Assembly (NCBI GenBank): GCA_017413105.1
Contig: JAFPVA010000141.1
Coordinates: forward strand, 1 to 64,000
Reading direction: 5' to 3'
From: Butyrivibrio sp.
GTDB taxonomy: Bacteria > Bacillota > Clostridia > Lachnospirales > Lachnospiraceae
DNA: 64,000 nt
A program made the translations under genes and the position numbers. Each line of letters starts with the position of its first letter. The stretch's first letter is position 1. The notes below the pieces were generated by a model. That model was not told the DNA's origin. It did not search any database and saw only the letters and a list, made by a program, of their open reading frames with translations. Of the stretch, positions 6,186 to 51,790 are shown one piece after another.

Positions 6186-6368
6186 TTAACAATCAATCTT
6201 TATTACGGCACCTGTAAGGTCAGCAAAGGTCAGGGCGCCGCGAATCACTTTTTTTTCACCCATCATATCGATAAGGGTTATGGTGTCCCCGTCGATGGAA
6301 AGGGAGCTCACATATTCCATCAGTATTTCATCCGGGTTGGATGCTTTAACAGCTGTAGACAGGCACAT
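6186..6368 (-). CDS. cooT: CooT-family nickel-binding protein
   Basis: A 60-aa protein beginning Met-Cys, with the family layout MC...V......LM..V..L...G..I.L.DM.GE...I.G. In characterised CooT the second-residue cysteine of the dimer binds one Ni2+, and the protein helps mature CO dehydrogenase. Both the Cys2 and the small beta-barrel pattern (TITLIDMMGEKKVIRGAL) are visible. It is the last gene of a leftward run that also encodes a His-rich protein, a small membrane protein and two dehydratase-family subunits. No CO dehydrogenase gene is nearby, so its client is probably a metalloprotein of this cluster. The family call is strong; the client is inferred. Confidence 0.85.
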   Translation of the reverse strand: MCLSTAVKASNPDEILMEYVSSLSIDGDTITLIDMMGEKKVIRGALTFADLTGAVIKIDC

Positions 6369-6383
6369 ATTCTTTCCTCCATA

Positions 6384-6617
6384 TCATAGTTTTTCAATCA
6401 GTTCTTTAAGAAGACTGTTGGCTGTTTCGTAGGAACTGACTACAGCCTTAAGGGAATCAGACAGATCGCTTTTGTCAAGTTTTTCAAGGACTGCATCTAA
6501 TCCCTTAAGCTCATCTACATGATGAACATTATGCTCATGCATGCTGGACAAAAGAGCATTGAGCTTTGCGACTGAGTCGATCCCGCCGTGGGTATGGGTG
6601 TGCTCGTGATTTTCCAT
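6384..6617 (-). CDS. Small His-rich, probably metal-binding protein
   Basis: A 77-aa protein beginning MENHEHTHTHGG, a stretch of alternating histidines typical of nickel or zinc handling proteins, followed by an amphipathic helical body with further histidines (MHEHNVHHVDELKGL). The helical part resembles a small domain seen next to metal-trafficking genes. The start at 6617 is favoured because GGAGG sits 5 bp upstream, inside the 3' end of the preceding gene; an upstream in-frame ATG at 6644 lacks a site. It lies between the small membrane protein and CooT. By position it could play the part CooJ has in Rhodospirillum (His-rich nickel storage), but no sequence homology to CooJ is claimed. 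Confidence 0.65.
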   Translation of the reverse strand: MENHEHTHTHGGIDSVAKLNALLSSMHEHNVHHVDELKGLDAVLEKLDKSDLSDSLKAVVSSYETANSLLKELIEKL

Positions 6618-6618
6618 A

Positions 6619-6849
6619 TTATCCTCCAATCTCTGTGTACTCATCAGGAGACACAGAATCCTTCATCATGTACGGAAGTTGTGTGTTGTCGTCGCGCTTC
6701 ATGTTATCAAAGCGCTTTACCATAAGCGGCTCCCAGATATAATACATAAATTTTCCATCAAGATCCCAGTAAAAAACAGCGAACAGAGCGCCATAGATCG
6801 CAGCGCAGATTCCAAGGATCTTAAGCAGGACTTTAATAAACGTCTTCAT
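6619..6849 (-). CDS. Small single-pass membrane protein of the dehydratase cluster (copy 1)
   Basis: A 76-aa protein with one N-terminal membrane helix (VLLKILGICAAIYGALFAVF) followed by WDLDGKFMYYI and a polar tail. The membrane segment and the motif W-x-LD-x-K are shared with the 55-aa protein at 15109-15276, which accompanies the other half of the cluster. It follows the large dehydratase subunit by 41 bp, and its stop overlaps the ribosome site of the His-rich gene, indicating one transcript. Function unknown; it may tether the metalloenzyme or its electron donor to the membrane. Confidence 0.65.
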   Translation of the reverse strand: MKTFIKVLLKILGICAAIYGALFAVFYWDLDGKFMYYIWEPLMVKRFDNMKRDDNTQLPYMMKDSVSPDEYTEIGG

Positions 6850-6890
6850 TGTCTTTCCCCTTTTGCATTTTATTTTGCAGGTGTCAATAA

Positions 6891-8579
6891 TTACCAGCTC
6901 TTATCATCGTCGAAGTCAACCAGCGTAGGATCTAGCGGCTCTTCGTGCATTACGGTGGTCATGTAGTCGCTTATGATCTTGCGTATCTCTTTTCTTGAGA
7001 CCGTACGCTTATCGGGAAGAGCATGAGGAACCCAGATGGCATGAATGTTGCGCTTTCTGAACTCGTCCTCAAATACTCCGTGGATTCCCTGCATTCCTTT
7101 GCACTGCAGCTGATCGTACATGATGACCATGTCGCAATGGAAGCGCTCCATGTAATCGAAAAGAGAGAGGATGTGTTCGTGTCCGCCAACGGCCATGGCA
7201 CGCATCGGCGCTTTCTCGTTCATCCAGGCAAGATCTTCAAGGGCATGCTCGTAGGAATCGGTCCGCAGATACTGGTCAAACATGAGGGAATCCATGTTTA
7301 TTACGCAGTTGATACCCCAGCAGTTGTAAGCCCAGGTGCACCAGTGCGAATAGTAGAGAGGAGCACAGCTCCAGGCAATTGCACGGTGTCTGGTCTTGGG
7401 GAAGGTCTCAATCTTGTTTTTAACAGTCTTATTCATGATGCGCCTTACATGCTCATCTATCTCATGCCAGATAGGTCTGTCACCATCCTGAGAATAATAG
7501 ATTCGGTAAAGAGCCTGAGCCACACCATTGATAGGATAGTAAGGAGTATTAGCTGCCACATCCCATTTTTCCCATTCGAACTCGGTGAGCTTATTGAAGG
7601 ATTTGGCATATTTGACATACTGGTCAAAGTCGAAAGGAATACCATAGTTTTCTTCTATGAATTTCCAGCAGCCCTCAATTTCTTTCTGGCAGTGCTTCTG
7701 AACCTCCGGATCGTCATAGCGCATAGGCTGTGGCAAAGCATATAGAGGACGGTTTAAGAACCAGTCCTGAAGTACGCTGGTGGCAACGCTGCCGTCGCAG
7801 GCTTCATTAGTGGTGACCATGACAGGAGCGTAATCCGGATAATCATCCAGAACAAAAAGACCATACTCAGCCTGACACATTGGGCAGGGGTCTGAGGGCA
7901 GTCCAATGGACTGGGCTGCATCAATATAGTTAAGTACAGTGTGATTGTTTACGTGAACAGATACAAAGTAGGGAATCATCTCGAGAGGCACGTCATCGAG
8001 CACATCTCTCCAGGGGTAAAAGATACTGCCGCCAACGGTCTCATTATGGGCAATATTCTTTTTCCAGGTCTCAGGTTCCTTGCCGTCGTGGAGCTTTTTA
8101 TCGGAGATGAACATGCGCATGAACTGGCGGATGGTCTCGCTGGTCATGCCGCGATAGTGCCAGGCAGAAGCCCTAAGGGCCTCGCCTCTCATTCCTTCCA
8201 TACCTCTGTCATACCAGTGCATAACAGTGAGATAGGTCTGACCCATCCAGCGATAACGCATGGTTCCCTTTGCAAATTCTACGATGCTCTTTGGACCGCC
8301 ACCGCCATATTTCATGATGTCGGTTACCATGTGAGCGTAGTTGTAGAGCCAAATCATGTTGAAGTAGTAGAAGGTGTCCTTTACGCCACGCCACTCACGG
8401 TGCTTGTAAAGGCCTGTATCTCCGACATAAAGATCTCCAAGGCGCCTTTCCTCATGAGGCTTTCCATAAATGAAATCTTTGGCAGCCTTTTTGAAATCTC
8501 TGGGCTGATTCTTTTGCTCGGGACTTTTTTCGACAACGAAAAGTTCACGATACTTAGCTTTTATATCACTCAACTTCAT
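6891..8579 (-). CDS. 2-hydroxyacyl-CoA dehydratase family protein, large subunit (set 1)
   Basis: A 562-aa member of the 2-hydroxyglutaryl-CoA dehydratase / benzoyl-CoA reductase D-component family, longer than the usual 380-480 aa. Three cysteines fit the Fe-S ligand pattern and are conserved in the set 2 paralogue: C232 (LPSDPCP), C261 (CDGS) and C493 (QCKG). A further cysteine C235 makes a CPMC motif absent from the paralogue. About 220 extra N-terminal residues rich in Trp and Tyr precede the first ligand. The C-terminus ends in DDDKSW, also shared with the paralogue (EDDTSW). It follows the small subunit by 3 bp, so the two are translated together and likely form a heterodimer. Known relatives use a low-potential electron, delivered by an ATP-dependent activator, to remove water or reduce small molecules; the substrate here is unknown. 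Confidence 0.85.
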   Translation of the reverse strand: MKLSDIKAKYRELFVVEKSPEQKNQPRDFKKAAKDFIYGKPHEERRLGDLYVGDTGLYKHREWRGVKDTFYYFNMIWLYNYAHMVTDIMKYGGGGPKSIVEFAKGTMRYRWMGQTYLTVMHWYDRGMEGMRGEALRASAWHYRGMTSETIRQFMRMFISDKKLHDGKEPETWKKNIAHNETVGGSIFYPWRDVLDDVPLEMIPYFVSVHVNNHTVLNYIDAAQSIGLPSDPCPMCQAEYGLFVLDDYPDYAPVMVTTNEACDGSVATSVLQDWFLNRPLYALPQPMRYDDPEVQKHCQKEIEGCWKFIEENYGIPFDFDQYVKYAKSFNKLTEFEWEKWDVAANTPYYPINGVAQALYRIYYSQDGDRPIWHEIDEHVRRIMNKTVKNKIETFPKTRHRAIAWSCAPLYYSHWCTWAYNCWGINCVINMDSLMFDQYLRTDSYEHALEDLAWMNEKAPMRAMAVGGHEHILSLFDYMERFHCDMVIMYDQLQCKGMQGIHGVFEDEFRKRNIHAIWVPHALPDKRTVSRKEIRKIISDYMTTVMHEEPLDPTLVDFDDDKSW

Positions 8580-8582
8580 GCA

Positions 8583-9779
8583 TCAGCCCTCCTTTCCTCT
8601 GTTTTGAATGTTCTTGAGTTCAATACTTTCAACAAATGCCTGGAAGCGGGTACGGAGCTGTCCAACGGCATTGTTTACGTATTCTTTTTCTATTGAACAG
8701 ACAGGGATACCGAAATCTCTCGGAAGGATAACGGTATCTATGGTACGCTCATAACTCCAGTATTCACAGAACTTCATCTGGGAAATGATTATGCCGTCTG
8801 CCTTATATTCTTTTGCCACATCTGCAAGATACTGCTTCCTCTGTCGCATGATATGCTGATCCATGAAGCGGGGACAGTTGCTGGTTTCAAGATAGTGGCG
8901 GGCTATGGCGTGGAGAGGAGTCTCGCCTTCCTTTACTACAATCTCTTCCCTGCCGGGGAGAGAGCCGTAGCAGTGTCTGTCAGCCACAACCAGGGCACCG
9001 CACTCTTCGATGAGCTTCACAAAATCAGGATCGTCATCCTCGGAGCCCGCTAGAACTACCTTACATCTGTAGGTCTTTTTCTCATCGGGCTTTCTGGTCT
9101 TAAGCTGCTCGGCAATATCTCTTAGCTTGTCGATTATCAGATACTTAGGGCACACTAAAGTGCAGAGCATGATGATACAGAATTCTGTGCCGGTGATGGT
9201 AGGTTCATCCAGCTTTCTGTAACTGCCGATCTCTGTAATAAGACGGCAGATCTCATTGTGCTCTTTTATGGCAGTCAGGAGTGCTTCGTCGCTGGTATCA
9301 ATGTCAAAGTGTTCCTTTAGCTTGTCCAGTACATGAACCTGAAGCTGCTTTTCATAATGTTCTATGGAATTGTCGTTTTTCTTAAACGGAACATCGGTGA
9401 ATTCACAAAAGAAGTCGGGGTTCTGAATGATGTCCATAAGCTGAAGATGCTCCTGAAATCTGCAGGTTACAGTGCAGGTCTCGGTAGCCATCTGGGCATC
9501 AAGAAAATTGAAACCGCCCTCAAGGGCCCGTTCCAAAAGACACCTGCCATACATGCAGGTACGGTTGGACATATAGTAGGTTGCCATGTCCGGTGAAGAA
9601 CTGCGGGGAGCGCGAAGACGCACTGAGAAACAGCCCGGAAGGTCAAGCAGGACCTCAGGCATAAAATAGCAGGTGTATCCAAGAGCGCGCAGACCATCAT
9701 CTTTAGCCTTGCGGACCAGCTCATTATTGGCTTCCTGCAAAAGGTCTTCGAGCTCAAAAATGTGCACGAGATCTTTCAT
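8583..9779 (-). CDS. 2-hydroxyacyl-CoA dehydratase family protein, small subunit (set 1)
   Basis: A 398-aa HgdB/BcrB-like subunit. The three family ligand cysteines are visible: C102 (TETCTV), C270 (ADRHCYGSLPGREE) and C338 (MKFCEYWSYER). The conserved tail GQLRTRFQAFVE follows. A GYTCY motif at C37 and paired cysteines at 75 and 80 are additional and mostly shared with the set 2 paralogue, to which it aligns nearly end to end. First gene of a leftward five-gene run; the ATG is preceded by GGGGGC. In this family a [4Fe-4S] or double-cubane cluster sits between the two subunits and is reduced by the activator ATPase. No CoA-transferase or acyl-CoA dehydrogenase accompanies it, which argues against a standard amino-acid fermentation pathway. 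Confidence 0.85.
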   Translation of the reverse strand: MKDLVHIFELEDLLQEANNELVRKAKDDGLRALGYTCYFMPEVLLDLPGCFSVRLRAPRSSSPDMATYYMSNRTCMYGRCLLERALEGGFNFLDAQMATETCTVTCRFQEHLQLMDIIQNPDFFCEFTDVPFKKNDNSIEHYEKQLQVHVLDKLKEHFDIDTSDEALLTAIKEHNEICRLITEIGSYRKLDEPTITGTEFCIIMLCTLVCPKYLIIDKLRDIAEQLKTRKPDEKKTYRCKVVLAGSEDDDPDFVKLIEECGALVVADRHCYGSLPGREEIVVKEGETPLHAIARHYLETSNCPRFMDQHIMRQRKQYLADVAKEYKADGIIISQMKFCEYWSYERTIDTVILPRDFGIPVCSIEKEYVNNAVGQLRTRFQAFVESIELKNIQNRGKEG

Positions 9780-10048
9780 ATTTAGTTGCCCCCTCTGATC
9801 ATTATATAAAAGAATATACCATACTTAATGATAACATAAAGGATAGGAAACTTGAACGATTTATTGATTATTAATAATGTTGTAACAAATATGAAAATAT
9901 GCAAAGTTATCAGAAAATTCACGGAAACTTTATCGGTTATGCCTTTCTGAATGTTTTGATTTTTTTTGTTATATTTCATTAAAATTTACTGTGAAAAATA
10001 GTCTTTTTAGGCTAAAATGATTATAAGGTTATTTCAGGGGGATTTTTT

Positions 10049-10810
10049 ATGGGGGACCATACTAAGATCATTGCACTTACAGGCAAGGGAGGTGTTGGCA
10101 AGACATCTCTTTCGGCTTCTATTGTGCGTATTTTAACGGAGAATTATCCGGATTCTAAAATTCTTGCTATTGATGCAGATCCTGCAGTTGGATTATCTGT
10201 TGCGTTGGGGGTCAGACCACTTCTTACTTTGGATGAGATAAGGAAGAAAGTTGCGGAGGACGTTACAGGGAAACTACGAGACACACAGGATATTCTGGCG
10301 GAAGCCAAATTCCAATTATATGAAACTATGGTAGAGAAAAACGGCTTTGCTTTTCTGGCTATTGGAAGACCGGAAGCGGCAGGCTGTTATTGTGCTATAA
10401 ATACATATCTCAGGAAGGTTATTGAGATGCTGGTAGATGACTTCGACTTTGTAGTCATAGACGGAGAGGCCGGTATCGAGCAGATAAACAGAAGGGTCTT
10501 GGAGAAGGTGACTCATCTTATCTGCGTATCGGACCAGAGCAGAAAGGGCCTTCAGATAATCGAGACCATAAAAAATGTGGCGGATGAGCTTGTAATGTAC
10601 GACCGCATTGGCCTTATCGTCAACAGGGCACCGCTTCCGGAAAAACTTACGGAGAAAGAGATAGGTGGAGTGCCTGTGGCTGCTGTGATCAGGCAGGACG
10701 ACGACATGACGGAGAACGATATCGAGGGACGAAGCGTCTTTGAACTTCCGGAGAGTTCGATTATTCTTGAGGGAGCGAGAACGGCCCTTAAGAATATGGA
10801 GATTATATGA
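10049..10810 (+). CDS. cooC: CooC-type nickel-insertion ATPase
   Basis: A 253-aa MinD/SIMIBI-class P-loop ATPase. It has the deviant Walker A GKGGVGKTS at residues 12-20, DADPAVGLS at 42-50, and the diagnostic segment GRPEAAGCYC at 106-115. The C-x-C cysteines (C113, C115) correspond in position to the Cys pair that binds nickel or zinc at the dimer interface of CooC1. CooC proteins insert nickel into CO dehydrogenase, and a close relative serves acetyl-CoA synthase. There is a GGGGGA ribosome site. It is transcribed away from set 1 and toward set 2, with two tandem structured repeats in between. The assignment is strong; the client enzyme is not identified and no CooS gene lies in the window. 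Confidence 0.9.
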   Translation: MGDHTKIIALTGKGGVGKTSLSASIVRILTENYPDSKILAIDADPAVGLSVALGVRPLLTLDEIRKKVAEDVTGKLRDTQDILAEAKFQLYETMVEKNGFAFLAIGRPEAAGCYCAINTYLRKVIEMLVDDFDFVVIDGEAGIEQINRRVLEKVTHLICVSDQSRKGLQIIETIKNVADELVMYDRIGLIVNRAPLPEKLTEKEIGGVPVAAVIRQDDDMTENDIEGRSVFELPESSIILEGARTALKNMEII

Positions 10811-10873
10811 TGACAAGGGCATAGGTTATGAGGCGTTCCGGTGCTAATGATAGCCTTATGGCTTTGTACAGTA

Positions 10874-11018
10874 TGAGTTCTTGGATAAAAATACAGAAAT
10901 CCGCACTTGCTGCGGGTTTCGTGAGAACATGATTCAAGAGTCAACCAAGCCCTGCGACGTTAGTCGCCTTCAAATGGCTTGGTTGATACATTCTTGGATT
11001 TTATATCCAAGAATGTAT
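10874..11018 (+). repeat. Family 2 three-hairpin repeat, copy A
   Basis: Three hairpins in order: H1 10896-10920 (GAAATCCGCA/TGCGGGTTTC), H2 with an 11-bp perfect stem (10941-10951 with 10976-10986) capped by an inner GCGAC/GTCGC stem, and H3 with a 13-bp perfect stem (10986-10998 with 11006-11018). The conserved linker GTGAGAACATGATTCA joins H1 and H2. The 5' end (TTCTTGGATA, 10878-10887) is also complementary to the right arm of H3, allowing an alternative fold. It lies between cooC and the second dehydratase pair. Confidence 0.8.
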
Positions 11019-11160
11019 GAGTTCTTGGATATAATTACAGAAATCCGCACTTGCTGCGGGTTTCGTGAGAACATGATTCAGGTGGCAAACAAGCCCTTCG
11101 ACGTAAGTCGACTGGAATAGGCTTGTTTGCTGATATCTTGAATGTTTCATTCAAGATATC
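11019..11160 (+). repeat. Family 2 three-hairpin repeat, copy B (tandem)
   Basis: Same architecture as copy A: H1 11040-11064, H2 stem 11085-11095 with 11120-11130, H3 stem 11132-11144 with 11148-11160 (13 bp perfect). H1 and the linker are nearly identical to copy A. H2 differs at two stem positions with compensating changes (T-A to G-C, C-G to A-T), and H3 has a different sequence yet pairs perfectly. This copy ends 31 bp before the TTG start of the next gene, so it would form the 5' leader if transcription continues from cooC. Confidence 0.8.
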
Positions 11161-11191
11161 ATAATAATATAACACGAGAGGGGGGCTTTCT

Positions 11192-12385
11192 TTGCAAGAT
11201 CTGAAATATCTGATAACCTTTGAACAGCTTTTAGAGGATGCAACCAATAAGCTCATCAGAGAAGCTCAGGATGAAGGACAGTATGCTATTGGCTATACCT
11301 GTTATCATATGCCTGAGGTTCTTTTGAACGTTGACAACTGTTTCTCGGTGAGAATGCGTGCGCCCAGGATTGGCTCAACGGATATCTCAACCTACTATAT
11401 GTCAAACTATACCTGTGAGTTTGCCAGGTCACTGCTTGAAAACGGAATAGAGGGTGGCTACAAGTTTCTTGACGCTGTGGCAGGAGTCGATGCCTGCTCA
11501 GCCATGAACAGATGTTATGAGCATCTGGAGATTCTTGAGTGTAATGACAAACCTCACTTTTTTGTAACTCATACCGATGTGCCCTACAAGGTTGAAAAAT
11601 ATAATGTGGATCAGGTTGCTACTCAGATGAGACTTAGGCTCCTTGATGTCATGCACGAAAAGCTTGGCACGAATGTTTCAGATGATGCCATAAGGAAGGC
11701 AGTCGAGGAACATAACGAGCTGTGCCGCATTATCACTCAGATTGGAGAGTTCAGAAAAGAGGACAATCCAAGGATAACCGGTTACGAGTTCCATGTTATC
11801 TGCCTTGTGAGCTACTGCTGTCCGACAGCCGGGATCCTTCCTATGTTAAAAGAGACACTGGAGGAGCTAAAGGACAGAAAGCCGGATGAAAAGCCCTGGT
11901 TCAGAGCAAGAGTTGTGGTTGTGGGTTCTGAAATAGACGACCTTAACTTTACAAAGCTTCTTGAGGAAGCGGGAGCGATGGTAGTAGCTGACAGATATTG
12001 CTACGGCTCTTTCCCCGGAAGAGAAGAAATAGTACTTAATGATGACGAAGATATAGTCAAACAGATAGCAAGGCATTACATGCGGACCAGTGAATGTCCG
12101 AGATATATGGCCGAAGAGAAAGTTCTCCAGAGAAAAGAAACTGTGGACAGACTGGCAAAAGAATTCAAGGCTGACGGTGTTATCTATGAACAGATGAAGT
12201 ACTGTGATTTCTGGGCCTTTGAGAGACCTCTTGCAAGCCACATCATGACGGAAGAATACGGATGGCCGACGCTTTCCATCGACAGATCCTACAACGTTCA
12301 TGCGTCAGGTCAGCTCCGGACAAGATTCCAGGCCTTTGTTGAGGCACTGGAGATCAAGAAGATCAGGAAAAGGGAGGTAATGTGA
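11192..12385 (+). CDS. 2-hydroxyacyl-CoA dehydratase family protein, small subunit (set 2)
   Basis: A 397-aa paralogue of the 8583-9779 product, colinear from the first residue. The ligand cysteines fall at the same positions: C102 (DACSAM), C270 (ADRYCYGSFPGREE) and C338 (MKYCDFWAFER). GYTCY at C37 and the GQLRTRFQAFVE tail are also kept. The start is a TTG: it is preceded by GAGAGGGGGG at about 7 bp and gives an N-terminus (MQDLKYLITFEQLLEDA) that aligns with its paralogue. The stop overlaps the start of the large subunit gene. It likely pairs with the next gene product as a heterodimer. The two tandem family 2 repeats form its upstream region. Confidence 0.85.
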   Translation: MQDLKYLITFEQLLEDATNKLIREAQDEGQYAIGYTCYHMPEVLLNVDNCFSVRMRAPRIGSTDISTYYMSNYTCEFARSLLENGIEGGYKFLDAVAGVDACSAMNRCYEHLEILECNDKPHFFVTHTDVPYKVEKYNVDQVATQMRLRLLDVMHEKLGTNVSDDAIRKAVEEHNELCRIITQIGEFRKEDNPRITGYEFHVICLVSYCCPTAGILPMLKETLEELKDRKPDEKPWFRARVVVVGSEIDDLNFTKLLEEAGAMVVADRYCYGSFPGREEIVLNDDEDIVKQIARHYMRTSECPRYMAEEKVLQRKETVDRLAKEFKADGVIYEQMKYCDFWAFERPLASHIMTEEYGWPTLSIDRSYNVHASGQLRTRFQAFVEALEIKKIRKREVM

Positions 12386-14160
12386 TGAAATACATTGATC
12401 CCAAAAACTTCAGATTAAAGGACAATATAGACTGGAAGGCCCAGGCTGAAAACATGAAAGAAATCGCCGGTATCGTGGGCGAGATGATAAAGGAGACGGA
12501 TTTTAAAGAAGTTGCAAGGTCTGTGGGGAAGGATGCAAAGGGACTTAAAAAGCGCCTTAACCATGAGCTTGACCTCTTAAAGAATATGTCTCCCGACGAG
12601 ATAAAAGACCTTGTTTTAAACGGAGAAAAGCAGCTTGGAAAGCTTTATGCCTCCGGCAAAATGGCCACTGTCAGAAGAGAGTGGAGAGGTATAAAGGATA
12701 CCGGAGTAGATTTTTATGAGTGGACCAAAATGTGGGGAATGCTCCTTGCTACTTTTTCCAAGGATCTGGTTCCTGCCATGATGGGTGCTGTGCACTACAG
12801 ATGGATGATTTCCTATTTCTGCTGTCACTCCTTTATGGACAAGAATACCATGGGACTTAGGGGAACAGCCCTCAAGATGCACCATGAGCTCATCTATGCA
12901 ATATTCAGATACGTTGCAGAGAACCTGGTTCTTCTCATGAAGTCCGATGAGAAAGTTGGTAACTGTAAAGAACTTTCCAAGAAGATAGTTCTTTTTGACG
13001 AGATGACAATGTCACAGATAATGGCAGGATTTCCGGACCTTATCGGAATTCCGTACCAGCTGATGCCGGTATTTCTTTTGTCTGAGATAGATCAGCTGGC
13101 TTGTATGCCATATATCGATGCGGTTGAGTCCTACGGACTTCCGTCGGATACCTGCCCGGTTCCGTCTTCGGAATGCGGAGCGGCAGTTGTGGATGCACTT
13201 CCTCATATGGGCGCCTGCTTTATTTCAAGCTCAATGCCTTGTGACGGATCTGTAATGGCATCCTCTTATACCAGCAGAAGATTCAAGGACCTTCCTACAT
13301 ATCATTTGGCTTTCCCTGTCAGATATGAGGATGAGTCACTTATGGATGCAGCGGTAAAAGACATTCAGGGCTGCATTAGATTTATAGAAGAGAACACCGG
13401 CGCAAAGTGGAACTGGGATGCATATTTTGCAGCCATGAAGCGCTTTAACGAAGAAACGAAATATGAGCTCCAGAAGTGGGAGATAAACCAGACTCCACAT
13501 CCTCAGCTCATTGGTCCATGTTATGAGCTTTTCAGAAAGTGGAACTATGAGATGGACGGAGGTCTTGATCCGAGAATCATTTCGACCTTCAAGAAAGTCG
13601 ACAAGCTCATGATGAAAGCTTATGAGAGGAAAGAAGAACCCTGGCGCGGCAAGATGAAGTACAGGGCAATTGTCTGGTCCATACCTGCTCACTACTACGC
13701 TAACTTTTCCAACTGGATGGCAAACTGTTGGGGCGTAGATATCCTTGTAGAGATGGAGTCCCTTAACTTCACCAAGCCCCTTGAAACTGAGGACAGGGAA
13801 GAGGCCTTCAAGGATCTGGCAAGACTCTACGAGCGAATGGTAATGAGAAGGCACACCAACGGTGGTTATGACCACGTGGTTACCGAACTTTGGAGACAAT
13901 GTGAACTGTGGAATGTAGATTTTGTCCTTATGTATCAGCATGTTTCCTGCAAGAACATGGCTACGGTTCAGGGACTTTTCGAGGATCAGGCAAGGGAGCG
14001 CGGTATAAAGCTTCTGTGGTGTAGCCACGATCTGATGGATCCGAGAACTGTTTCAAGAAAAGATATGCGTGCTACGGTAAATGAATTCATGAGGACAGTC
14101 ATGAAGGCAGAGCCGGTTGATCCTTCACTGGAGGATTTTGAAGACGACACATCCTGGTGA
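12385..14160 (+). CDS. 2-hydroxyacyl-CoA dehydratase family protein, large subunit (set 2)
   Basis: A 591-aa paralogue of the 6891-8579 product. Shared features are HxRWM in the N-terminal half, LPSDTCPV (first ligand Cys near 257), PCDGSV (Cys near 286), SCKNM (Cys near 522), RTVSRK and the C-terminal EDDTSW. It has no Cys where set 1 has the second Cys of CPMC; instead a Cys sits seven residues after the first (CPVPSSEC), so the cluster environment may differ. The first ~90 residues are charged, helical and not shared with set 1. The ATG at 12385 overlaps the preceding stop (TGATG) and has AGGGAGG 7 bp upstream; a GTG one codon earlier is also possible. The reaction is unknown. Confidence 0.85.
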   Translation: MKYIDPKNFRLKDNIDWKAQAENMKEIAGIVGEMIKETDFKEVARSVGKDAKGLKKRLNHELDLLKNMSPDEIKDLVLNGEKQLGKLYASGKMATVRREWRGIKDTGVDFYEWTKMWGMLLATFSKDLVPAMMGAVHYRWMISYFCCHSFMDKNTMGLRGTALKMHHELIYAIFRYVAENLVLLMKSDEKVGNCKELSKKIVLFDEMTMSQIMAGFPDLIGIPYQLMPVFLLSEIDQLACMPYIDAVESYGLPSDTCPVPSSECGAAVVDALPHMGACFISSSMPCDGSVMASSYTSRRFKDLPTYHLAFPVRYEDESLMDAAVKDIQGCIRFIEENTGAKWNWDAYFAAMKRFNEETKYELQKWEINQTPHPQLIGPCYELFRKWNYEMDGGLDPRIISTFKKVDKLMMKAYERKEEPWRGKMKYRAIVWSIPAHYYANFSNWMANCWGVDILVEMESLNFTKPLETEDREEAFKDLARLYERMVMRRHTNGGYDHVVTELWRQCELWNVDFVLMYQHVSCKNMATVQGLFEDQARERGIKLLWCSHDLMDPRTVSRKDMRATVNEFMRTVMKAEPVDPSLEDFEDDTSW

Positions 14161-14281
14161 TGTGTGTGATATTTGGACGCAAAGTATGACAATGTTGTGC
14201 TTGCACAAGACATTATCATAACTTGCAGACATAACAGATATGAGAAAAAAGTAAATTATTATATTTAGGAGGATTTTTTAA

Positions 14282-15076
14282 ATGAAATATTTTGGCGGAT
14301 GCGATGTAGGATCTACTTATACAAAGGCTGTCATCATTGATGAGACAGGAAAGATGGTGGCAAACACCACTTTAAAGAGTAAGATCATCGCTCAGGAATC
14401 AGCTGAGATGGCGATGAAGGAGGTTATAAGTCAGGTTCCGGAATTGAATAGTGCCAAGGACCTTGCTTATCTTATAGGTACAGGCTACGGACGAAATAAG
14501 GTTCCTTTTGCGGATGAGAATATTTCTGAGATTTCCTGCCATGCTATGGGCGTTCATGTAACGAATCCTTCAGTTAAGGCTATCATCGATATCGGCGGAC
14601 AGGATGTTAAGGGCATTGCCATTGACACTGACGGAACCGTCAAGAACTTTGCCATGAATGATAAGTGCGCTGCCGGAACAGGAAGATTCTTTGAGGCTAT
14701 GGCAAGATCCTTTGAGATGTCTCTTGAGGATTTCTCAAAGCTTTCACTTAAGGCAAAAAATGTTATTCCTATCACAGCACAGTGCACAGTATTTGCAGAG
14801 TCTGAGGTCATCACCCTTGTCGGTGAAGGAAAGCCTATGGATGAGATTGCAGCAGGTATCGAGATGGCTGTTGCAAAGAGATGTTTCGTAATGTCCAAGA
14901 AAGCAGGCGCTACAGATTCCATCACTCTTACCGGTGGCTGTGCAAAGAACGACGGTCTTAAGGCTGCCATAGAGCAGGTTCTTAAGCTCAAGGTTGTAAA
15001 TCTTTCAACCGATCCTCAGCTCATGGGAGCACTTGGTGCTGCAGAGTACGCAAGACAGAAGGGATTGTCACGCTGA
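14282..15076 (+). CDS. 2-hydroxyacyl-CoA dehydratase activator ATPase (HgdC/BcrA-type, ASKHA fold)
   Basis: A 264-aa BadF/BadG/BcrA/BcrD-family ATPase. Its dimer holds one [4Fe-4S] cluster and uses ATP to push a low-potential electron into the dehydratase or reductase. Visible motifs are the phosphate loop DVGSTYTKAVIID at residues 8-20, DIGGQDVKGI at 103-112, the cluster cysteines C129 (NDKCAAGTGRF) and C168 (AQCTVFAESE), and the adenosine motif TGGCAKN. The length is normal for a single-domain activator. It is the only activator in the window, so it presumably serves both dehydratase pairs. It is separated from the upstream gene by 121 bp that contain a weak inverted repeat near 14190-14213, and it has an AGGAGG ribosome site. 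Confidence 0.93.
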   Translation: MKYFGGCDVGSTYTKAVIIDETGKMVANTTLKSKIIAQESAEMAMKEVISQVPELNSAKDLAYLIGTGYGRNKVPFADENISEISCHAMGVHVTNPSVKAIIDIGGQDVKGIAIDTDGTVKNFAMNDKCAAGTGRFFEAMARSFEMSLEDFSKLSLKAKNVIPITAQCTVFAESEVITLVGEGKPMDEIAAGIEMAVAKRCFVMSKKAGATDSITLTGGCAKNDGLKAAIEQVLKLKVVNLSTDPQLMGALGAAEYARQKGLSR

Positions 15077-15108
15077 CAAAAATAGTGATTTACAGAGAGG
15101 AAATATCG

Positions 15109-15276
15109 ATGAGCAAAGCGCTTAAGATTTTCTTTAAGATAGTAAAAATATTGACCATCATTACGGGCGTTCTGTTCGTGGTGTATTTTTGGAATCTGGA
15201 CCAGAAGCTGATGGCTTGGCTCTATTCACAGGTCAATAAGATATTTGATCGAAAGAAAGCGGATATTAGGTTCTAG
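15109..15276 (+). CDS. Small single-pass membrane protein of the dehydratase cluster (copy 2)
   Basis: A 55-aa protein: a basic N-terminus (MSKALKIFFKIVKI), one membrane helix (LTIITGVLFVVYFW) and NLDQKLMAWL, then a basic tail. The pattern G-x-LF-x-V-x-x-W-x-LD-x-K is shared with the 76-aa protein at 6619-6849. The start at 15109 has GAGAGGAAA upstream; an upstream in-frame ATG at 15085 is only 8 bp from the activator stop and has no site. It lies between the activator and the ACS-like gene (3-bp gap). Each half of the cluster carries one such protein, so it is likely a real component, perhaps a membrane anchor. Confidence 0.7.
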   Translation: MSKALKIFFKIVKILTIITGVLFVVYFWNLDQKLMAWLYSQVNKIFDRKKADIRF

Positions 15277-15279
15277 GAT

Positions 15280-15996
15280 ATGAAATTATACGACAAAATA
15301 ATAAATGATACTCTTGAGGTGCTGGAGGCTTCCCCACTTGTGGAGGATAGCTATCAGTATGATGAGACAAATGTCTGGAAGGATGCCGGGAACAGCGAGT
15401 TCATCATGCAGAGGGATGCCGCCTTTGAAATCGGCGGTGGCGGGGAACCATCAGTTAATTATACCCTTGTTACCACCTCGGGAATTGTTTCTGAGGATGA
15501 GATTTACGTATATGGCGAAGACATCGGGGACATTAGCGGAAATTCAGCTTTTGCCAGAATCGTGATATTGGAAACGGAAGACCTGGGCGAGGAAAGTGAC
15601 CAGGAAAAAGCGTTTCAGGCCATCCGAAATCTTGAATTTGTCCGCTATCATGTTTTTCCCGAAGGATATATGGTCCGTGTATCGGCAAGGAGCAATCAGG
15701 AGCAGATAAGGTTCAGCAAAAATGCCATCAGGAAAGGTATCTCTTTTGCCAGAGTGGGAAATCTTTATATAAAAAAATATAAAGAAGTTCCCGGAGTAAA
15801 GAAGGTAAGAGTGATATTCATAACTGACAGAAATCTGGTGGAAAAGCTTCTTCCGAATGCAGATAAGGTGGATAACATCACCAAAACCTTGACGCACATT
15901 CTGGACGGACTTCCTACAGACTGCGGACATTGCAGCATGAAGCCTGTATGTGACGAAGTGGATGGCATGAGAGAGCTGCACCTTGGAAAACACTGA
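15280..15996 (+). CDS. Acetyl-CoA synthase (CdhC/AcsB)-related mini-protein with CxxCx5C motif
   Basis: A 238-aa protein resembling the portion of ACS/CdhC that precedes and enters the A-cluster domain. Points of resemblance: AFEIGGGG near residue 48 (ACS: ELGGP), an acidic YGEDIGD segment (ACS: IGPDI), then a run ending RVSARS...FSKNAIRKGISFARVG (ACS: IRVSKKA..KGL....IG) and VKKVRVIFITD (ACS: I.K.QVTFITD). It ends with DCGHCSMKPVC (C215, C218, C224), where ACS has CTLCQSFAPNHVC. The later Cys-Gly-Cys that holds the distal nickel in ACS is missing because the protein stops. It follows the small membrane protein by 3 bp and precedes the oxidoreductase by 40 bp. With CooC and CooT present, a nickel or Fe-S site is plausible. 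Homology is judged by eye. Confidence 0.72.
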   Translation: MKLYDKIINDTLEVLEASPLVEDSYQYDETNVWKDAGNSEFIMQRDAAFEIGGGGEPSVNYTLVTTSGIVSEDEIYVYGEDIGDISGNSAFARIVILETEDLGEESDQEKAFQAIRNLEFVRYHVFPEGYMVRVSARSNQEQIRFSKNAIRKGISFARVGNLYIKKYKEVPGVKKVRVIFITDRNLVEKLLPNADKVDNITKTLTHILDGLPTDCGHCSMKPVCDEVDGMRELHLGKH

Positions 15997-16036
15997 CATT
16001 AGGCGAAAATAATAAACCGTAAAGGGGGAATAAGAC

Positions 16037-18100
16037 TTGAAACAGGAATATGGATCTTTATTCACACCCTGGAAGATAGGCAATCTGGAGATAAAGAACA
16101 GAATTGTCCTTGCACCCATGGGGGGAACCTGTATTTTTGGCTGGATGGAGCCGGGCGGAAGCCATTTTGACAAAGAGGCAGCAAGACTGCTTCTTAAGGT
16201 TGCCAAAAATGACTGCGGTCTGGTAATACCCGGAATTGCACCGGTAAAGGATATGCTGGGCGGGAAGTGGCTCTACCAGAACAAGGGCAAGTTTAAGCAG
16301 CTAAAGAGCTTCATGGATGAACTTCACGGAACGGGAGCAAAGATGTTTGTACAGCTTACTGCCGGCTTCGGAAGGTCTTTTGCCATGACTGAGCCTCTGG
16401 CACTTTTAGTGCGTAATAAGCAGCTTGGAAAAATCGCAAGGCCTTATATCGATCCGGAGTATCTTACAGCTGCGCCTTCAGCTCTGCCTAACAGATGGGC
16501 TGATGACATCATCACAAGGCCCGTAACAGTTGAAGAGATACAGCACATTGTCTATGCTTTTGGTGAGACTGCAAGGCTCTGTAAAGAGGCCGGCGTTGAT
16601 GGTATCGAGGTACATGCTGTTCATGAGGGATATCTTCTTGACCAGTTTACCTTAGGCTACACCAATCACAGGACAGATGATTATGGCGGTTCTTTTGAGA
16701 ACAGATACCGCTTTGCTGTTGAGATAGTAAAAGAGATAAAGGCAAAATGCGGAGAGGATTTCCCTGTTTCTCTGCGTTATTCCGTTCGTTCCATGACAAA
16801 GGCTTTCCAATACGGCGCTATGCCCGGAGAGGATTTTGAGGAAATAGGACGTGATATGGAGGAGTCTGAGAAGGCTGCAAAATATCTGCAGGATGCCGGC
16901 TACGACATGCTCAACTGTGACAACGGAACTTATGATGCCTGGTATTGGGCACATCCGCCGCAGTACATGCCTCAGAACTGTAATCTTGAGGACGTGGCTC
17001 ATATCAAGAAATTTGTTGATATTCCTGTTGTCTGTGCAGGTAAGATGGAGCCAACGGTTGGAGCTAAGGCTATTGCCGATGGAAGCATCGATGCCATGGC
17101 AGTGGGCAGACAGTTTTTGGCTGACCCCAAGTGGGTTGCAAAGCTGAAGAGGGGAAGAGAGATGGACATTCGTCCCTGCATCTGCTGTCACACAGCCTGC
17201 TTTAACATGGCTAAGCACGGAAACAGTGCAAACGATCAGGACCTTTCTGAGTCTGCAGGAATGTGCAAGTGCGCAGTCAATCCAAGAAGCATGCAGAGCA
17301 AGAAATACAAGGTCGTTCCAACCGCTAATCCAAAGAGAGTGGCTATAATAGGCGGCGGAATCGGTGGCATGGAGGCAGCAAGAATTCTGGCTCTCAGGGG
17401 ACATGAGCCTGTTATCTACGAAAAGACAGGAGAGCTTGGCGGCGTATTTATTGCAGCCGCAGCGCCTGAGTTCAAGGAAAAAGACAAGCAGCTGATCGAA
17501 TGGCAGAAGTATCAGCTAAGGAAACTTGGTGTAGAGATACATCTCAATACCGAAGTTGAAGCAGATGCTCTTCCCGAGGCTGACGAATTTATTATCGCTA
17601 CCGGAGCAGAAGCAAACAGGATTCCGATTCCGGGAGCTTCTGAATTTGCGATGGATGCCACAGATTATCTTCTTGGCAAAAAAGATGCCGGCGACAATGT
17701 GGTCATCATCGGCGGTGGCCTCACAGGCTGTGAGATTGCACTTGACCTTTTCAGAAAGGGAAAACATCCTCAGATCGTAGAGATGAAGGATGATCTTATC
17801 CCGGTAAAGAATATGTGCCTTGCCAATACAAGCTATCTTCGTGACTGCTTTAAGACCAACAAGGTTCCGGTATATTTAAAGGCAGGGGTATCCAGGATAG
17901 AAAAGGATCATGTTGAAGTTCACACCAAGACCGGAAAAACTGTAAAACTTCCGGCTGACAGCGTTATCATGTCGGTGGGCTATCATGCTACACCGCTCAT
18001 GCAGCCTGCTAAGAATGTTCATCTTCTGGGCGATTGCAAAAAAGTAGGCAACGTCCGCTCTGCATTCTGGGGAGCATGGGACATTGCCATGAAGATTTAA
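16037..18100 (+). CDS. Old-yellow-enzyme family NADH:flavin oxidoreductase with Fe-S and FAD/NAD(P) domains (enoate reductase-like)
   Basis: A 687-aa enzyme with the 2,4-dienoyl-CoA reductase / 2-enoate reductase / BaiCD layout. An FMN TIM barrel occupies residues 1 to about 370 (LFTPWKIGNLEIKNRIVLAP; GVDGIEVHAVHEGYLLDQF; YGGSFENRYRF). The [4Fe-4S] site near 377-420 uses CICCHTAC and a later CAVNP cysteine. The C-terminal FAD/NAD module shows KRVAIIGGGIGGMEAARILA and a second dinucleotide motif VVIIGGGLTGCEIALDL. Such enzymes reduce activated C=C bonds or pass electrons between NADH and acceptors. It starts at TTG, with AAAGGGGGA 8 bp upstream. Last gene of the rightward run; it could feed electrons to the activator or act on the cluster's product. 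Confidence 0.88.
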   Translation: MKQEYGSLFTPWKIGNLEIKNRIVLAPMGGTCIFGWMEPGGSHFDKEAARLLLKVAKNDCGLVIPGIAPVKDMLGGKWLYQNKGKFKQLKSFMDELHGTGAKMFVQLTAGFGRSFAMTEPLALLVRNKQLGKIARPYIDPEYLTAAPSALPNRWADDIITRPVTVEEIQHIVYAFGETARLCKEAGVDGIEVHAVHEGYLLDQFTLGYTNHRTDDYGGSFENRYRFAVEIVKEIKAKCGEDFPVSLRYSVRSMTKAFQYGAMPGEDFEEIGRDMEESEKAAKYLQDAGYDMLNCDNGTYDAWYWAHPPQYMPQNCNLEDVAHIKKFVDIPVVCAGKMEPTVGAKAIADGSIDAMAVGRQFLADPKWVAKLKRGREMDIRPCICCHTACFNMAKHGNSANDQDLSESAGMCKCAVNPRSMQSKKYKVVPTANPKRVAIIGGGIGGMEAARILALRGHEPVIYEKTGELGGVFIAAAAPEFKEKDKQLIEWQKYQLRKLGVEIHLNTEVEADALPEADEFIIATGAEANRIPIPGASEFAMDATDYLLGKKDAGDNVVIIGGGLTGCEIALDLFRKGKHPQIVEMKDDLIPVKNMCLANTSYLRDCFKTNKVPVYLKAGVSRIEKDHVEVHTKTGKTVKLPADSVIMSVGYHATPLMQPAKNVHLLGDCKKVGNVRSAFWGAWDIAMKI

Positions 18101-18112
18101 GGTTGTAAAATA

Positions 18113-18156
18113 GGTGAAACGAGGGTGAAACGAGGGTGAAACGAGGGTGAAACGAG
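18113..18156. repeat. Four tandem copies of the 11-mer GGTGAAACGAG
   Basis: Four perfect, directly repeated 11-bp units (18113-18123, 18124-18134, 18135-18145, 18146-18156) run into the left arm of family 1 repeat copy 2. The other copies have only one related unit, so this looks like local slippage expansion of the repeat's edge. Confidence 0.9.
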
Positions 18157-18266
18157 GGGACGGTTCTTTCGTTCCACATTATGTGGAACATCAAGAACCG
18201 TCCCCATAGTTTCACCATTTTGTTGCAAAAAAAGTGGAACGAAGGAACCGTCCCCTCGTTCCACTT
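18113..18266. repeat. Family 1 REP-like palindromic repeat, copy 2
   Basis: GGGGACGGTTCTTTCGTTCC pairs with the AAGAACCGTCCCC arm around an inner TTCCACATTATGTGGAA palindrome, followed by an inverted half unit ending CCGTCCCCTCGTTCCAC. It fills the space between the convergent oxidoreductase (+) and chemoreceptor (-) genes, where it could act as a bidirectional terminator. Confidence 0.85.
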
Positions 18267-18273
18267 TCGTCTT

Positions 18274-50605: not shown

Positions 50606-51790
50606 ATGAACCTCAAGGACAGAATCACACAAAACAATATAAAGCGCGGAATTGTATTCGCTTCAAAGGTTGGAGACTTTGTAGAGAACAGGATCGGCAG
50701 GGCCATAGAAGAAAGAGGCTTTGAGGCTGATCTGCTCCCCAAGGAACCTGAGGACATGAAGTGGTACAGAGTTCCTATTGAGAAGGGAATGTCCGGTGAC
50801 GGCTCAGAGTATCATATTTATGTGAAAAAAGCAGACCCGAAAAAACTCTGTGTTTTCTTTTCTGGCGGTGGAGTTGCCTACAATGAATACACGGCAGCAA
50901 GGCCTGTCACAGGAGGCAAGGTTGCAGCAGGACTTCCGAATTATTACTGGAACAACCTAAGACCCTTTACCCAGATAATGAATATAAATGTGGGAATAAC
51001 GGAGATTGTGGACAAAAACCCCTTCAAGGACTGGAGCTTTGTAGTGGTTACCTATGCCACAGGAGATTTCCATGTGGGAAACAATGACTACCCTTACGTG
51101 GGAGAGGATGGAGAAAACAGAGTTCTGCATTTTCATGGTTATGTGAATTTTCATGAGAGCATGAAGGTGGCGAAAGCTCTTTTCCCAAATCCCGGGACAC
51201 TCCTCATTGCCGGTAACTCGGCAGGAGCCTTTGCAGTGCCTGCTCTTGCAGGAGAGATTGTAGATGATTATTATCCCAAGGCAAGGAATATAACTCTTTT
51301 TTCAGACAGCGGTCAGCTTCTCTATAAGCATTGGAGGAAAACCGCCAAAAATATCTGGATGACAAAAGAGTCTATATGGAAGCCTATAAAGAGCGAGAAC
51401 ATAACCCTTGACTGGTACAAAGATCTCTATAGCAAATATGGGGACAGATTCAGGTACCTTTATTCAAGTTCCATTTATGATTTTCTTTTAAGCGCATATT
51501 ATAACGATATTATCAGGAAAAAATATAAGACTGACCAGGAAGTCCAGATGGACTATTACAGACAGCTGGTGGAAATGGTGGGAGAGCTGAAGGCTCTTAC
51601 CCCGGATTTTGGTATGTTCTTAAATGAGTGGAGAATCCCTCTCATAACAATGGGAGGAACGGTTCATACAAGTGTAAGGGAAATGCATTTCCTTCATTTT
51701 ACCCAGGATGGGATAACTATGGCGAAATGGCTTTCCGACGCCTGCGAGGGAAAGGTGTACGACGTTGGAATGGAGCTCCTAAAAAGGTAA
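50606..51790 (+). CDS. Pectin acetylesterase-like alpha/beta hydrolase
   Basis: A 394-aa hydrolase of the pectinacetylesterase/Notum-like family. Signatures are the oxyanion-region FFSGGGVAYNEYTA near residue 75, VTYATGDFHVGNND near 147 and the nucleophile elbow LIAGNSAGAFAVPAL near 198 (Ser of GNSAG); a late His in MGGTVHTSVREMHFLHF near 350 could complete the triad. There is no signal peptide, so it is cytoplasmic. Placed behind the xylosidase and acyltransferase genes, it may remove acetyl groups from imported oligosaccharides, or act on the acyltransferase product. The ribosome site is weak (AAGGG). Confidence 0.78.
   Translation: MNLKDRITQNNIKRGIVFASKVGDFVENRIGRAIEERGFEADLLPKEPEDMKWYRVPIEKGMSGDGSEYHIYVKKADPKKLCVFFSGGGVAYNEYTAARPVTGGKVAAGLPNYYWNNLRPFTQIMNINVGITEIVDKNPFKDWSFVVVTYATGDFHVGNNDYPYVGEDGENRVLHFHGYVNFHESMKVAKALFPNPGTLLIAGNSAGAFAVPALAGEIVDDYYPKARNITLFSDSGQLLYKHWRKTAKNIWMTKESIWKPIKSENITLDWYKDLYSKYGDRFRYLYSSSIYDFLLSAYYNDIIRKKYKTDQEVQMDYYRQLVEMVGELKALTPDFGMFLNEWRIPLITMGGTVHTSVREMHFLHFTQDGITMAKWLSDACEGKVYDVGMELLKR

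What the first reader, a model, noticed from the sequence alone, without database searches (positions are those of the whole stretch)
6186..18100. Uncharacterised nickel-linked ATP-driven redox system: CooC, CooT and a His-rich protein with two 2-HAD pairs, an activator, an ACS-like mini-protein and an enoate-reductase-like enzyme
Seen: CooC with its CxC motif, CooT with Cys2, a HEHTHTH protein, two paralogous 2-hydroxyacyl-CoA dehydratase (2-HAD) subunit pairs, one ATP-dependent activator, an ACS/CdhC-related 238-aa protein and an Fe-S flavoenzyme, all in two divergent gene runs. Known: CooC, CooT and CooJ supply nickel to CO dehydrogenase; 2-HAD proteins and their activator use ATP to deliver very low-potential electrons, and double-cubane relatives reduce small molecules. 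Neither CO dehydrogenase nor any CoA-transferase or acyl-CoA dehydrogenase is present. Inference: the nickel chaperones mature one of the cluster's own proteins, giving a nickel-containing reductase or small-molecule activation complex not described to my knowledge. The substrate is unknown.
Basis: partly seen in the sequence, partly recalled or inferred. Interest (0 to 1): 0.95.

Follow-up and report, generated by a model that had tools for sequence, protein, structure and literature searches.

The report
Nickel-matured ATP-driven Birch-type reductase system
Many gut bacteria and some environmental bacteria carry a conserved gene set for a predicted ATP-driven iron-sulfur reductase, related to enzymes that reduce benzene rings, together with its own set of likely nickel-handling proteins and, in nearly all the gut genomes examined, no carbon monoxide dehydrogenase, so the reductase would be an undescribed nickel-dependent kind.

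Summary
The genes are there as described and form a real, old unit. In 79 genomes of the window's genus (Butyrivibrio by names of relatives) the small 2-HAD subunit occurs in 28, the truncated ACS ("mini-ACS") in 27 of those (in the other the contig ends inside the cluster), CooT in 25 of those, and none of them in the other 51. True CO dehydrogenase occurs in 13, none overlapping. One scan of named genomes gave 78 loci, from Lachnospiraceae to Actinomycetota, with CooC beside or close to mini-ACS wherever flanks suffice.

The small subunits keep all six cysteines that hold the [8Fe-9S] cluster of benzoyl-CoA reductase BzdN; the large ones keep three cysteines like BzdO's [4Fe-4S] site, but the residue three places after the second is Ser or Asn, not His. 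In gut lineages nearly every pair has a tiny membrane protein. One mini-ACS accompanies two or three pairs. This CooC is its own clade.

Best reading: an ATP-driven Birch-type reductase system; CooC, CooT and a His-rich protein likely load nickel on mini-ACS, which matures or feeds the pairs. Nickel, ATP use and substrate are untested.

The parts
6186..6368 (-). CooT-like protein, 60 aa, Cys2 kept
   Evidence: PF10133 49.6 bits, cut-off 27; Cys2 in 29 of 29 aligned rows
6384..6617 (-). small His-containing protein (HEHTHTH near the N terminus), CooJ-like in composition only; a start at 6644 is also possible
   Evidence: sequence; ORFs with 8 or more His in 20 residues lie in the cluster or within 1.5 kb in 18 of 78 relatives, L108's being of doubtful frame; the window's own protein is below that threshold
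6619..6849 (-). small single-span membrane protein of pair A (76 aa)
   Evidence: a protein of this type in 41 of 42 gut loci; 100 of 101 such ORFs hydrophobic over 1.6
6891..8579 (-). large 2-HAD subunit A, 562 aa (Cys232, 261, 493)
   Evidence: PF06050 92.5 bits; the three Cys in 39 of 39
8583..9779 (-). small 2-HAD subunit A, 398 aa, six double-cubane-type Cys
   Evidence: PF06050 290 bits; six Cys each in 42 of 42
10049..10810 (+). CooC-type ATPase, own clade, CxC at 113/115
   Evidence: 3kje 6e-16; CxC 63 of 63; tree
11192..12385 (+). small 2-HAD subunit B, 397 aa (TTG start), Cys37, 75, 102, 270, 302, 338
   Evidence: align to BzdN Cys36, 73, 100, 263, 293, 327
12382..14160 (+). large 2-HAD subunit B, 592 aa (Cys258, 287, 523; Ser290)
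   Evidence: PF06050 121 bits; AlphaFold2 model, best PDB matches BzdO, HadB, MbdO, DCCP
14282..15076 (+). ATP-dependent activator (acyl-CoA dehydratase activase family)
   Evidence: TIGR00241 215 bits, cut-off 125; PF01869 190 bits
15109..15276 (+). small single-span membrane protein of pair B (55 aa; an upstream GTG at 15085 is possible)
   Evidence: kept beside the pair in relatives
15280..15996 (+). mini-ACS: middle domain of acetyl-CoA synthase plus DCxxCxxxxxC tail (Cys215, 218, 224)
   Evidence: PF03598 38 bits; all confident PDB matches of the model are ACS; Cys in 21 of 21
16037..18100 (+). Fe-S flavoenzyme of the BaiCD / bilirubin reductase / OYE group, 687 aa (TTG start)
   Evidence: PF00724 189 bits; NF041087 361 bits, below its cut-off 825

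Best explanation
The cluster encodes a family of likely ATP-driven, probably membrane-anchored, Birch-type iron-sulfur reductases (small-large 2-HAD pairs) with a dedicated set of predicted nickel-handling proteins that would load nickel onto a truncated acetyl-CoA synthase serving all the pairs. Step 1 (inferred from families): the ASKHA activator hydrolyses ATP and pushes electrons into the small subunit. Step 2 (ligands shown by alignment, cluster inferred): the small subunit holds an [8Fe-9S] double-cubane cluster on six cysteines. Step 3 (inferred): electrons pass to the three-cysteine cluster of the large subunit, which reduces the substrate. Step 4 (inferred): CooT and the His-rich protein bring nickel, the CooC-type ATPase inserts it into the mini-ACS cysteine tail, and mini-ACS passes nickel or a Ni-Fe-S unit to the pairs. 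Step 5 (inferred): the OYE-type flavoenzyme finishes the product. Likely substrates are lipid-like or alicyclic acyl compounds with C=C bonds or rings.
For: One unit: small 2-HAD subunit in 28 of 79 genus genomes; mini-ACS in 27 of those and in none of the other 51; CooT in 25 of the 28 and 0 of 51; CODH over cut-off in 0 of 28 and 13 of 51. [NiFe] hydrogenase is no predictor of CooT (21 of 25 with CooT, 43 of 54 without, p 0.76). 42 of 42 gut loci with enough flank have CooC, activator, small and large subunit within 10 kb of mini-ACS (about half are the same Butyrivibrio contigs as in the genus survey); 13 of 13 environmental loci have CooC next to mini-ACS. Outside the genus: of 40 gut genomes with mini-ACS, 35 have CooT and 38 have no CODH. 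Six of six BzdN cluster cysteines aligned and kept. Own CooC clade, support 99/99. Mini-ACS one match in each of 27 genomes against three small subunits in 21 of 28. The mini-ACS tail has low model confidence, as a flexible carrier tail might. Precedent: nickel chaperones HypA/HypB with the putative isoprene reductase IsrA (PMC10134865).
Against: No metal, activity or interaction data. CooC relatives also act outside nickel (MinD/ParA family). The cysteine tail of mini-ACS falls in register with the A-cluster CxxC of true ACS, but the gain is small: 1 of 20 and 2 of 20 tail shuffles scored as high, and the environmental profile alone does not extend there by default. CooT is not found in 5 of 40 gut genomes outside the genus nor in 3 of 28 in it, one of them 99% complete, and lies within 10 kb in only 25 of 42 loci. 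In three Actinomycetota loci with enough flank (L078, L080, L082) no pair lies beside mini-ACS; it is elsewhere in the genome. All 13 environmental genomes have CODH matches, so there nickel proteins have another client. The OYE-type gene is missing in 4 of 42 gut loci and is only a ~30% relative in 5 more. Substrate rests on neighbours and predicted membrane anchors only.
Confidence: 0.5

Rival explanations
1. Mini-ACS is not a carrier but the nickel enzyme itself or a Ni-Fe-S electron-transfer subunit, and the 2-HAD pairs and activator keep its nickel in a low-valent state, as the ATP-driven activation machinery does for methyl-coenzyme M reductase (recalled).
For: It is the only part homologous to a nickel enzyme; in Actinomycetota loci L078, L080 and L081 activator, mini-ACS and CooC stand together, in the first two with no pair in about 5 kb or more upstream.
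Against: The ACS domain that carries the A-cluster is absent (238 aa; match ends at the cysteine tail); L082 has mini-ACS and CooC without an adjacent activator; the tail is modelled with low confidence; one copy against several pairs.
Confidence: 0.22
2. CooC, CooT and mini-ACS have been recruited for another metal or for iron-sulfur cluster assembly of the double-cubane pairs; nickel plays no part.
For: No nickel data; CooC belongs to a broad ATPase superfamily.
Against: Three different nickel-protein types (CooC with CxC 63 of 63, CooT with Cys2 29 of 29, His-rich proteins in part of the loci) keep company here; BzdNO, with the same clusters, was made in E. coli and its paper names neither nickel nor CooC (PMC11971306, passages), so cluster assembly alone would not obviously need this set.
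Confidence: 0.22
3. A conventional acyl-CoA pathway: the pairs are 2-hydroxyacyl-CoA dehydratases or benzoyl-CoA reductases and the nickel genes sit nearby by history.
For: Folds and ligands; ACADs, ETF and ligases beside environmental relatives, best NCBIfam model cyclohexane-1-carbonyl-CoA dehydrogenase at 111 of 650 bits.
Against: The four pairs tested score far below the equivalog cut-offs (for small subunit B: double_cubane 134 of 350, bzdN 105 of 454, HadC 86 of 700); the BzdO His131 position is Ser in 95 of 95 and Asn in 11 of 11; co-occurrence with mini-ACS across lineages.
Confidence: 0.08
4. CooC and CooT here serve a CO dehydrogenase elsewhere in the genome.
For: That is their known role (PMC13056359, passages); environmental genomes have CODH.
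Against: CODH in 0 of 28 system-bearing genomes of the genus and 2 of 40 other gut genomes; none of the 13 CODH-bearing genomes of the genus has CooT.
Confidence: 0.02

Closest known systems
Class I benzoyl-CoA reductase (BzdNOPQ, MbdONPQ)
   Same: Small subunit with six [8Fe-9S] cysteines, large subunit with three cysteines, ATP-dependent activator; several environmental relatives have two activators
   Different: Far below the equivalog scores; catalytic His131 position changed; N-terminal extension of the gut-type large subunit; small membrane proteins; mini-ACS, CooC, CooT attached
Double-cubane cluster protein DCCP and its reductase
   Same: Best NCBIfam model for the small subunits tested; six aligned cysteines; single activator as in most gut loci
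   Different: DCCP is one protein; here small-large pairs; scores 129-156 of the 350-bit cut-off
Acetyl-CoA synthase (AcsB/CdhC) with AcsF
   Same: Fold of the ACS middle domain; paired with a CooC-type ATPase
   Different: A-cluster domain missing; different CooC clade
CooCTJ nickel set of CO dehydrogenase
   Same: CooC, CooT, a His-rich protein in part of the loci
   Different: No CODH in nearly all gut carriers; linked to 2-HAD pairs instead
Putative isoprene reductase operon isr (IsrA with HypA, HypB)
   Same: Nickel chaperones tied to an anaerobic C=C reductase in a genome without [NiFe] hydrogenase
   Different: IsrA is a different flavoprotein; other chaperones; no 2-HAD proteins named in the passages seen

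Membership tests
Class I benzoyl-CoA reductase | Six cysteines for [8Fe-9S] in the small subunit | tested here: met
   6 of 6 aligned to BzdN; kept in SmB 50-51 of 51 (one gap), SmA 42 of 42, environmental 7 of 7
Class I benzoyl-CoA reductase | Three cysteines for active-site [4Fe-4S]-OH2 in the large subunit | tested here: met
   56 of 56, 39 of 39, 11 of 11; fold match to BzdO; which Cys matches which is inferred from order
Class I benzoyl-CoA reductase | Catalytic His three residues after the second cysteine (BzdO His131) | tested here: not met
   Ser 95 of 95 in gut type, Asn 11 of 11 in environmental type, if the second cysteines correspond
Class I benzoyl-CoA reductase | Equivalog score | tested here: not met
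   four small subunits: bzdN 83-139 of 454 bits, bcrC 62-114 of 421
2-hydroxyacyl-CoA dehydratase | HadC equivalog score and cluster ligands | tested here: not met
   four small subunits 74-111 of 700 bits; in the alignment HadC has no Cys at the places of Cys37 and Cys270
DCCP | NF040772 cut-off 350 bits, single-gene protein | tested here: not met
   small subunits 129-156 bits; pairs of genes
ATP-dependent acyl-CoA dehydratase activase | TIGR00241 over cut-off | tested here: met
   215 bits, cut-off 125
Acetyl-CoA synthase / CdhC | A-cluster domain (CxxC, C, C and the Ni-binding Cys-Gly-Cys, recalled) | tested here: not met
   protein ends after the CxxCx5C tail
CooC | P-loop ATPase with CxC | tested here: met
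   GKGGVGKT and CYC; CxC 63 of 63
CooC | Binds nickel and hydrolyses ATP | not testable with these tools
   needs protein
CooT | PF10133 over cut-off, Cys2 | tested here: met
CooJ | Homology beyond His richness | tested here: inconclusive
   no Pfam family over cut-off for the window protein, none for the His-rich protein of L141
BaiCD / bilirubin reductase | Equivalog score | tested here: not met
   361 of 825 and 359 of 750 bits

The most novel reading that the evidence does not exclude
A nickel-containing Birch-type reductase: nickel sits at the open corner of the large subunit's three-cysteine cluster (where benzoyl-CoA reductase has Fe-OH2 and His131), inserted by CooC by way of mini-ACS; the membrane-anchored enzyme hydrogenates unactivated C=C bonds or rings of lipids, and in Butyrivibrio proteoclasticus is the missing step that turns unsaturated fatty acids into stearic acid.
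Probability: 0.12. Interest if true: 0.95.

Novelty: new variant of a known kind. Interest (0 to 1): 0.82.

Why it matters
If true it adds a nickel-served branch to the few enzymes that reduce unactivated rings or double bonds, shows CooC/CooT and an ACS domain working without CO dehydrogenase, and gives a concrete gene candidate set, with natural presence/absence in 28 against 51 sequenced species of one genus, for orphan rumen reductions such as stearate formation. It would also change how CooC and CooT are read in annotation: they would no longer be evidence of CO metabolism.

Tried and rejected
Considered and set aside: CODH service; [NiFe] hydrogenase service; chance neighbourhood. LarA, a nickel enzyme, lies beside the cluster in L107, L116 and L128 (cluster 30; Pfam for L107 only), in 3 of 78 loci. 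A gene that by eye looks like RACo lies several kb off in 7 loci and was not identified. The likeness of the mini-ACS tail to the A-cluster cysteines was first taken as good evidence; the shuffles cut it down to a hint.

Literature: ten searches of an open-licence library; in their listings and in what I opened I saw no paper that joins 2-HAD proteins with CooC, CooT or an ACS fragment in one gene cluster. Listings not opened include PMC4148979 and PMC6739815 and PMC5114307 and PMC7035244; PMC7306483 (passages) names DCCP and CooC genes of one organism in separate gene groups. Subscription papers and preprints are not in that library. Seen: PMC11971306 and PMC10134865 (abstract and passages); PMC13056359, PMC2914790, PMC4478896, PMC7325909, PMC7306483, PMC10269723 (passages).

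Recalled, from no call: the MCR activation analogy, Moorella residue numbers, the A-cluster Cys-Gly-Cys, the gene name AcsF for the acsB-side CooC. In 'AcsFpos' (downstream of acsB) and 'CooCpos' (other side of acsB; by spacing next to the CODH gene, not checked) are labels given by score and place.

Sampling: the CooC tree used 24 rows of this system (of 63 in the CooC set, picked for spread), 12 and 14 from 14 of 15 ACS loci, 1 outgroup. 'Environmental' (13 loci) and 'gut' (65 loci) were sorted by record names. Two of the 27 mini-ACS matches (G439, G474) show one TAA in the matched stretch, not examined. Fisher values ignore kinship among genomes.


Full report
WHAT IS THERE. The window lies in a 4.45 Mb draft genome (94.9% complete). 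Names of close relatives are Butyrivibrio. Minus run: small 2-HAD A, large 2-HAD A, a 76-aa membrane protein, a His-rich protein, CooT. Plus run: CooC, small 2-HAD B, large 2-HAD B, activator, a 55-aa membrane protein, the ACS-like protein, a BaiCD-like Fe-S flavoenzyme.

IS IT MORE THAN CHANCE? In 79 genomes of the genus, mini-ACS is found in 27, CooT in 25, CO dehydrogenase over cut-off in 13 (four more genomes have only weak matches below it) and the small 2-HAD subfamily (E up to 1e-20) in 28. The 28 are the 27 plus G471, where the cluster's contig ends inside large subunit B (L256). All 25 CooT genomes are among the 28. None of the 13 CODH genomes is (small subunit with mini-ACS p 2.7e-20, with CooT p 1.3e-17, with CODH p 0.003; not corrected for kinship). 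[NiFe] hydrogenase (PF00374) is in 64 of 79 and independent of CooT. Against the trend: three of the 28 have no CooT match (G404, G459, G469), of which G404 is 99% complete.

HOW FAR DOES IT REACH? A survey of 398 genomes drawn across the phylum found matches in 29: the window's genome, G160 with one mini-ACS and one true ACS, and 27 more whose match carries the true A-cluster motif (L003-L030, 28 of 28 with G160's). The mini-ACS neighbourhood of G160 (L057) is acyl-CoA dehydrogenase x2, two unknown genes, small and large 2-HAD, two activators, mini-ACS, CooC. A single scan of named genomes with a mixed mini-ACS alignment gave 78 loci: by record names 13 environmental (Actinomycetota such as Ca. 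Solincola and Ca. Geothermincola, Syntrophomonadaceae, another Bacillota) and 65 gut. Environmental: CooC next to mini-ACS in 13 of 13; with at least 4 kb upstream and 1 kb downstream, 10 loci: activator within 6 kb in 8, pair in 6. Where the pair is not adjacent it is elsewhere in the genome: a small-subunit match was found in 14 of 14 environmental genomes (G160 included), with one to four high-scoring copies in 12 of them, a fragmented copy in G487 and only a weaker relative in G486. Gut, at least 9 kb upstream and 2 kb downstream, 42 loci: CooC 42, activator 42, small and large subunit 42, a membrane protein 41, an OYE-type flavoenzyme 38 (5 of them only about 30% alike), CooT 25, two small subunits or more 37 (identities). 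CODH: in the 13 environmental genomes 12 have a match over the cut-off and G487 a long fragment just under it (467 of 478 bits); of 40 gut genomes outside Butyrivibrio, one has a whole CODH (L128) and one fragments (L130). CooT: 13 of 13 environmental and 35 of 40 gut. In three Actinomycetota stretches CooT lies near an activator-like gene and a 2-HAD module (G478:C40, G480:C36, less closely G481:C1).

THE CATALYTIC PAIRS. By sequence the small subunit's nearest solved relative is BzdN. The six BzdN cysteines that hold its [8Fe-9S] cluster (Cys36/73/100/263/293/327, PMC11971306 passages) align one to one with Cys37, 75, 102, 270, 302, 338 and are kept: SmB 50 or 51 of 51, SmA 42 of 42, environmental 7 of 7 (short ORFs were left out before the count). 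The large subunit was modelled (mean pLDDT 80); all 20 PDB matches with E up to 0.001 are BzdNO, MbdON, HadBC and DCCP chains. Three cysteines are invariant (56 of 56, 39 of 39, 11 of 11), as BzdO's Cys95/128/380. The residue three after the second, His131 in BzdO, is Ser (95 of 95) or Asn (11 of 11); this pairing is by order, not by a printed structural alignment. None of the 2-HAD proteins tested reaches an equivalog cut-off. So: works like a benzoyl-CoA reductase or double-cubane reductase (inferred), not a member of either.

THE NICKEL SIDE. CooC has CxC in 63 of 63. In a tree with CooC genes from ACS loci, those of this system form their own clade (99/99), apart from the group found downstream of acsB (94/88) and the group on its other side (93/100). 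Mini-ACS was modelled well (pLDDT 86) except for the tail; all 23 PDB matches with E up to 0.001 are ACS. It has only the ACS middle domain (ACS residues about 297-480) and a DCxxCxxxxxC tail invariant in 21 of 21. Profile alignment puts the CxxC in register with the A-cluster CxxC (also with the gut-only profiles by default, with the environmental profile only in a greedy mode), but tail shuffles did as well in 1 of 20 and 2 of 20, so this is a hint. Strongly His-rich ORFs lie in or by the cluster in 18 of 78 loci at the threshold used, one of them doubtful; the window's own protein is milder. IsrA, a putative isoprene reductase, is a published case where nickel chaperones accompany an anaerobic C=C reductase without the usual client (PMC10134865).

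COPY NUMBERS AND MODULES. Each of the 27 genomes has one mini-ACS match. Of the 28, 21 have a third small subunit at another locus; in the 13 such stretches fetched a small membrane protein of the same type is found, and in the five maps printed it follows a small and a large subunit. None is seen in the other 51. Of 91 gut-type small subunits, 90 are followed directly by a large one. A module of small, large and membrane protein is thus the unit that multiplies, while mini-ACS stays single. This is why I prefer a shared carrier or maturation role for mini-ACS over a subunit role.

SUBSTRATE. In environmental lineages the module often sits in an operon with two acyl-CoA dehydrogenases (for G160's the best, weak, NCBIfam model is cyclohexane-1-carbonyl-CoA dehydrogenase), sometimes ETF, AMP-ligases, a MaoC-type hydratase and a short-chain dehydrogenase. 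In gut lineages predicted membrane anchors and an OYE-type enzyme accompany it. Many gut records name ruminant samples (not counted).

VERDICT. Observation confirmed; interpretation partly supported. A conserved system that I did not find in the papers I could search, made of known families in a new combination. Nickel content, ATP use and substrate need the bench.

Noticed in passing
window 10871-11156: Two head-to-tail copies (83% alike) of a 142-nt repeat between cooC and the small subunit B gene; function unknown.
   Followed up: partly
window 18117-18270: GTGAAACGAGG tandem repeats and a 50-nt inverted repeat (84%) just after the flavoenzyme gene; by eye a similar stretch lies near 21.9 kb.
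   Followed up: partly
G000:C168:2699-5709 (L243): Third small-large-membrane 2-HAD module in the same genome, at a separate locus; no neighbour that is shared with the other maps was noticed.
   Followed up: yes
L228 7848-13664 (G481:C32): In an Actinomycetota genome a CO dehydrogenase gene lies beside a 2-HAD module with ETF, ACADs and an AMP-ligase.
   Followed up: partly
L107 13486-14760; also L116, L128: Lactate racemase LarA, itself a nickel enzyme, next to the cluster, in L107 with ETF and an acyl-CoA dehydrogenase.
   Followed up: partly
   Followed up: no
L057, L228, L229, L234, L236, L241: Families D594, D227 and, in four of these, a ~150-160-aa protein recur in the environmental operon; the members tested have no Pfam match over cut-off.
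   Followed up: partly
L188-L192: None of five CODH-bearing Butyrivibrio stretches read (of 13 genomes) shows a CooC homologue near the CODH gene, only one MinD-like ORF.
   Followed up: partly
window 27154-57168: By eye, several diguanylate-cyclase-type genes and two esterase-like genes (50606-51790, 53447-55270) downstream; not examined.
   Followed up: no
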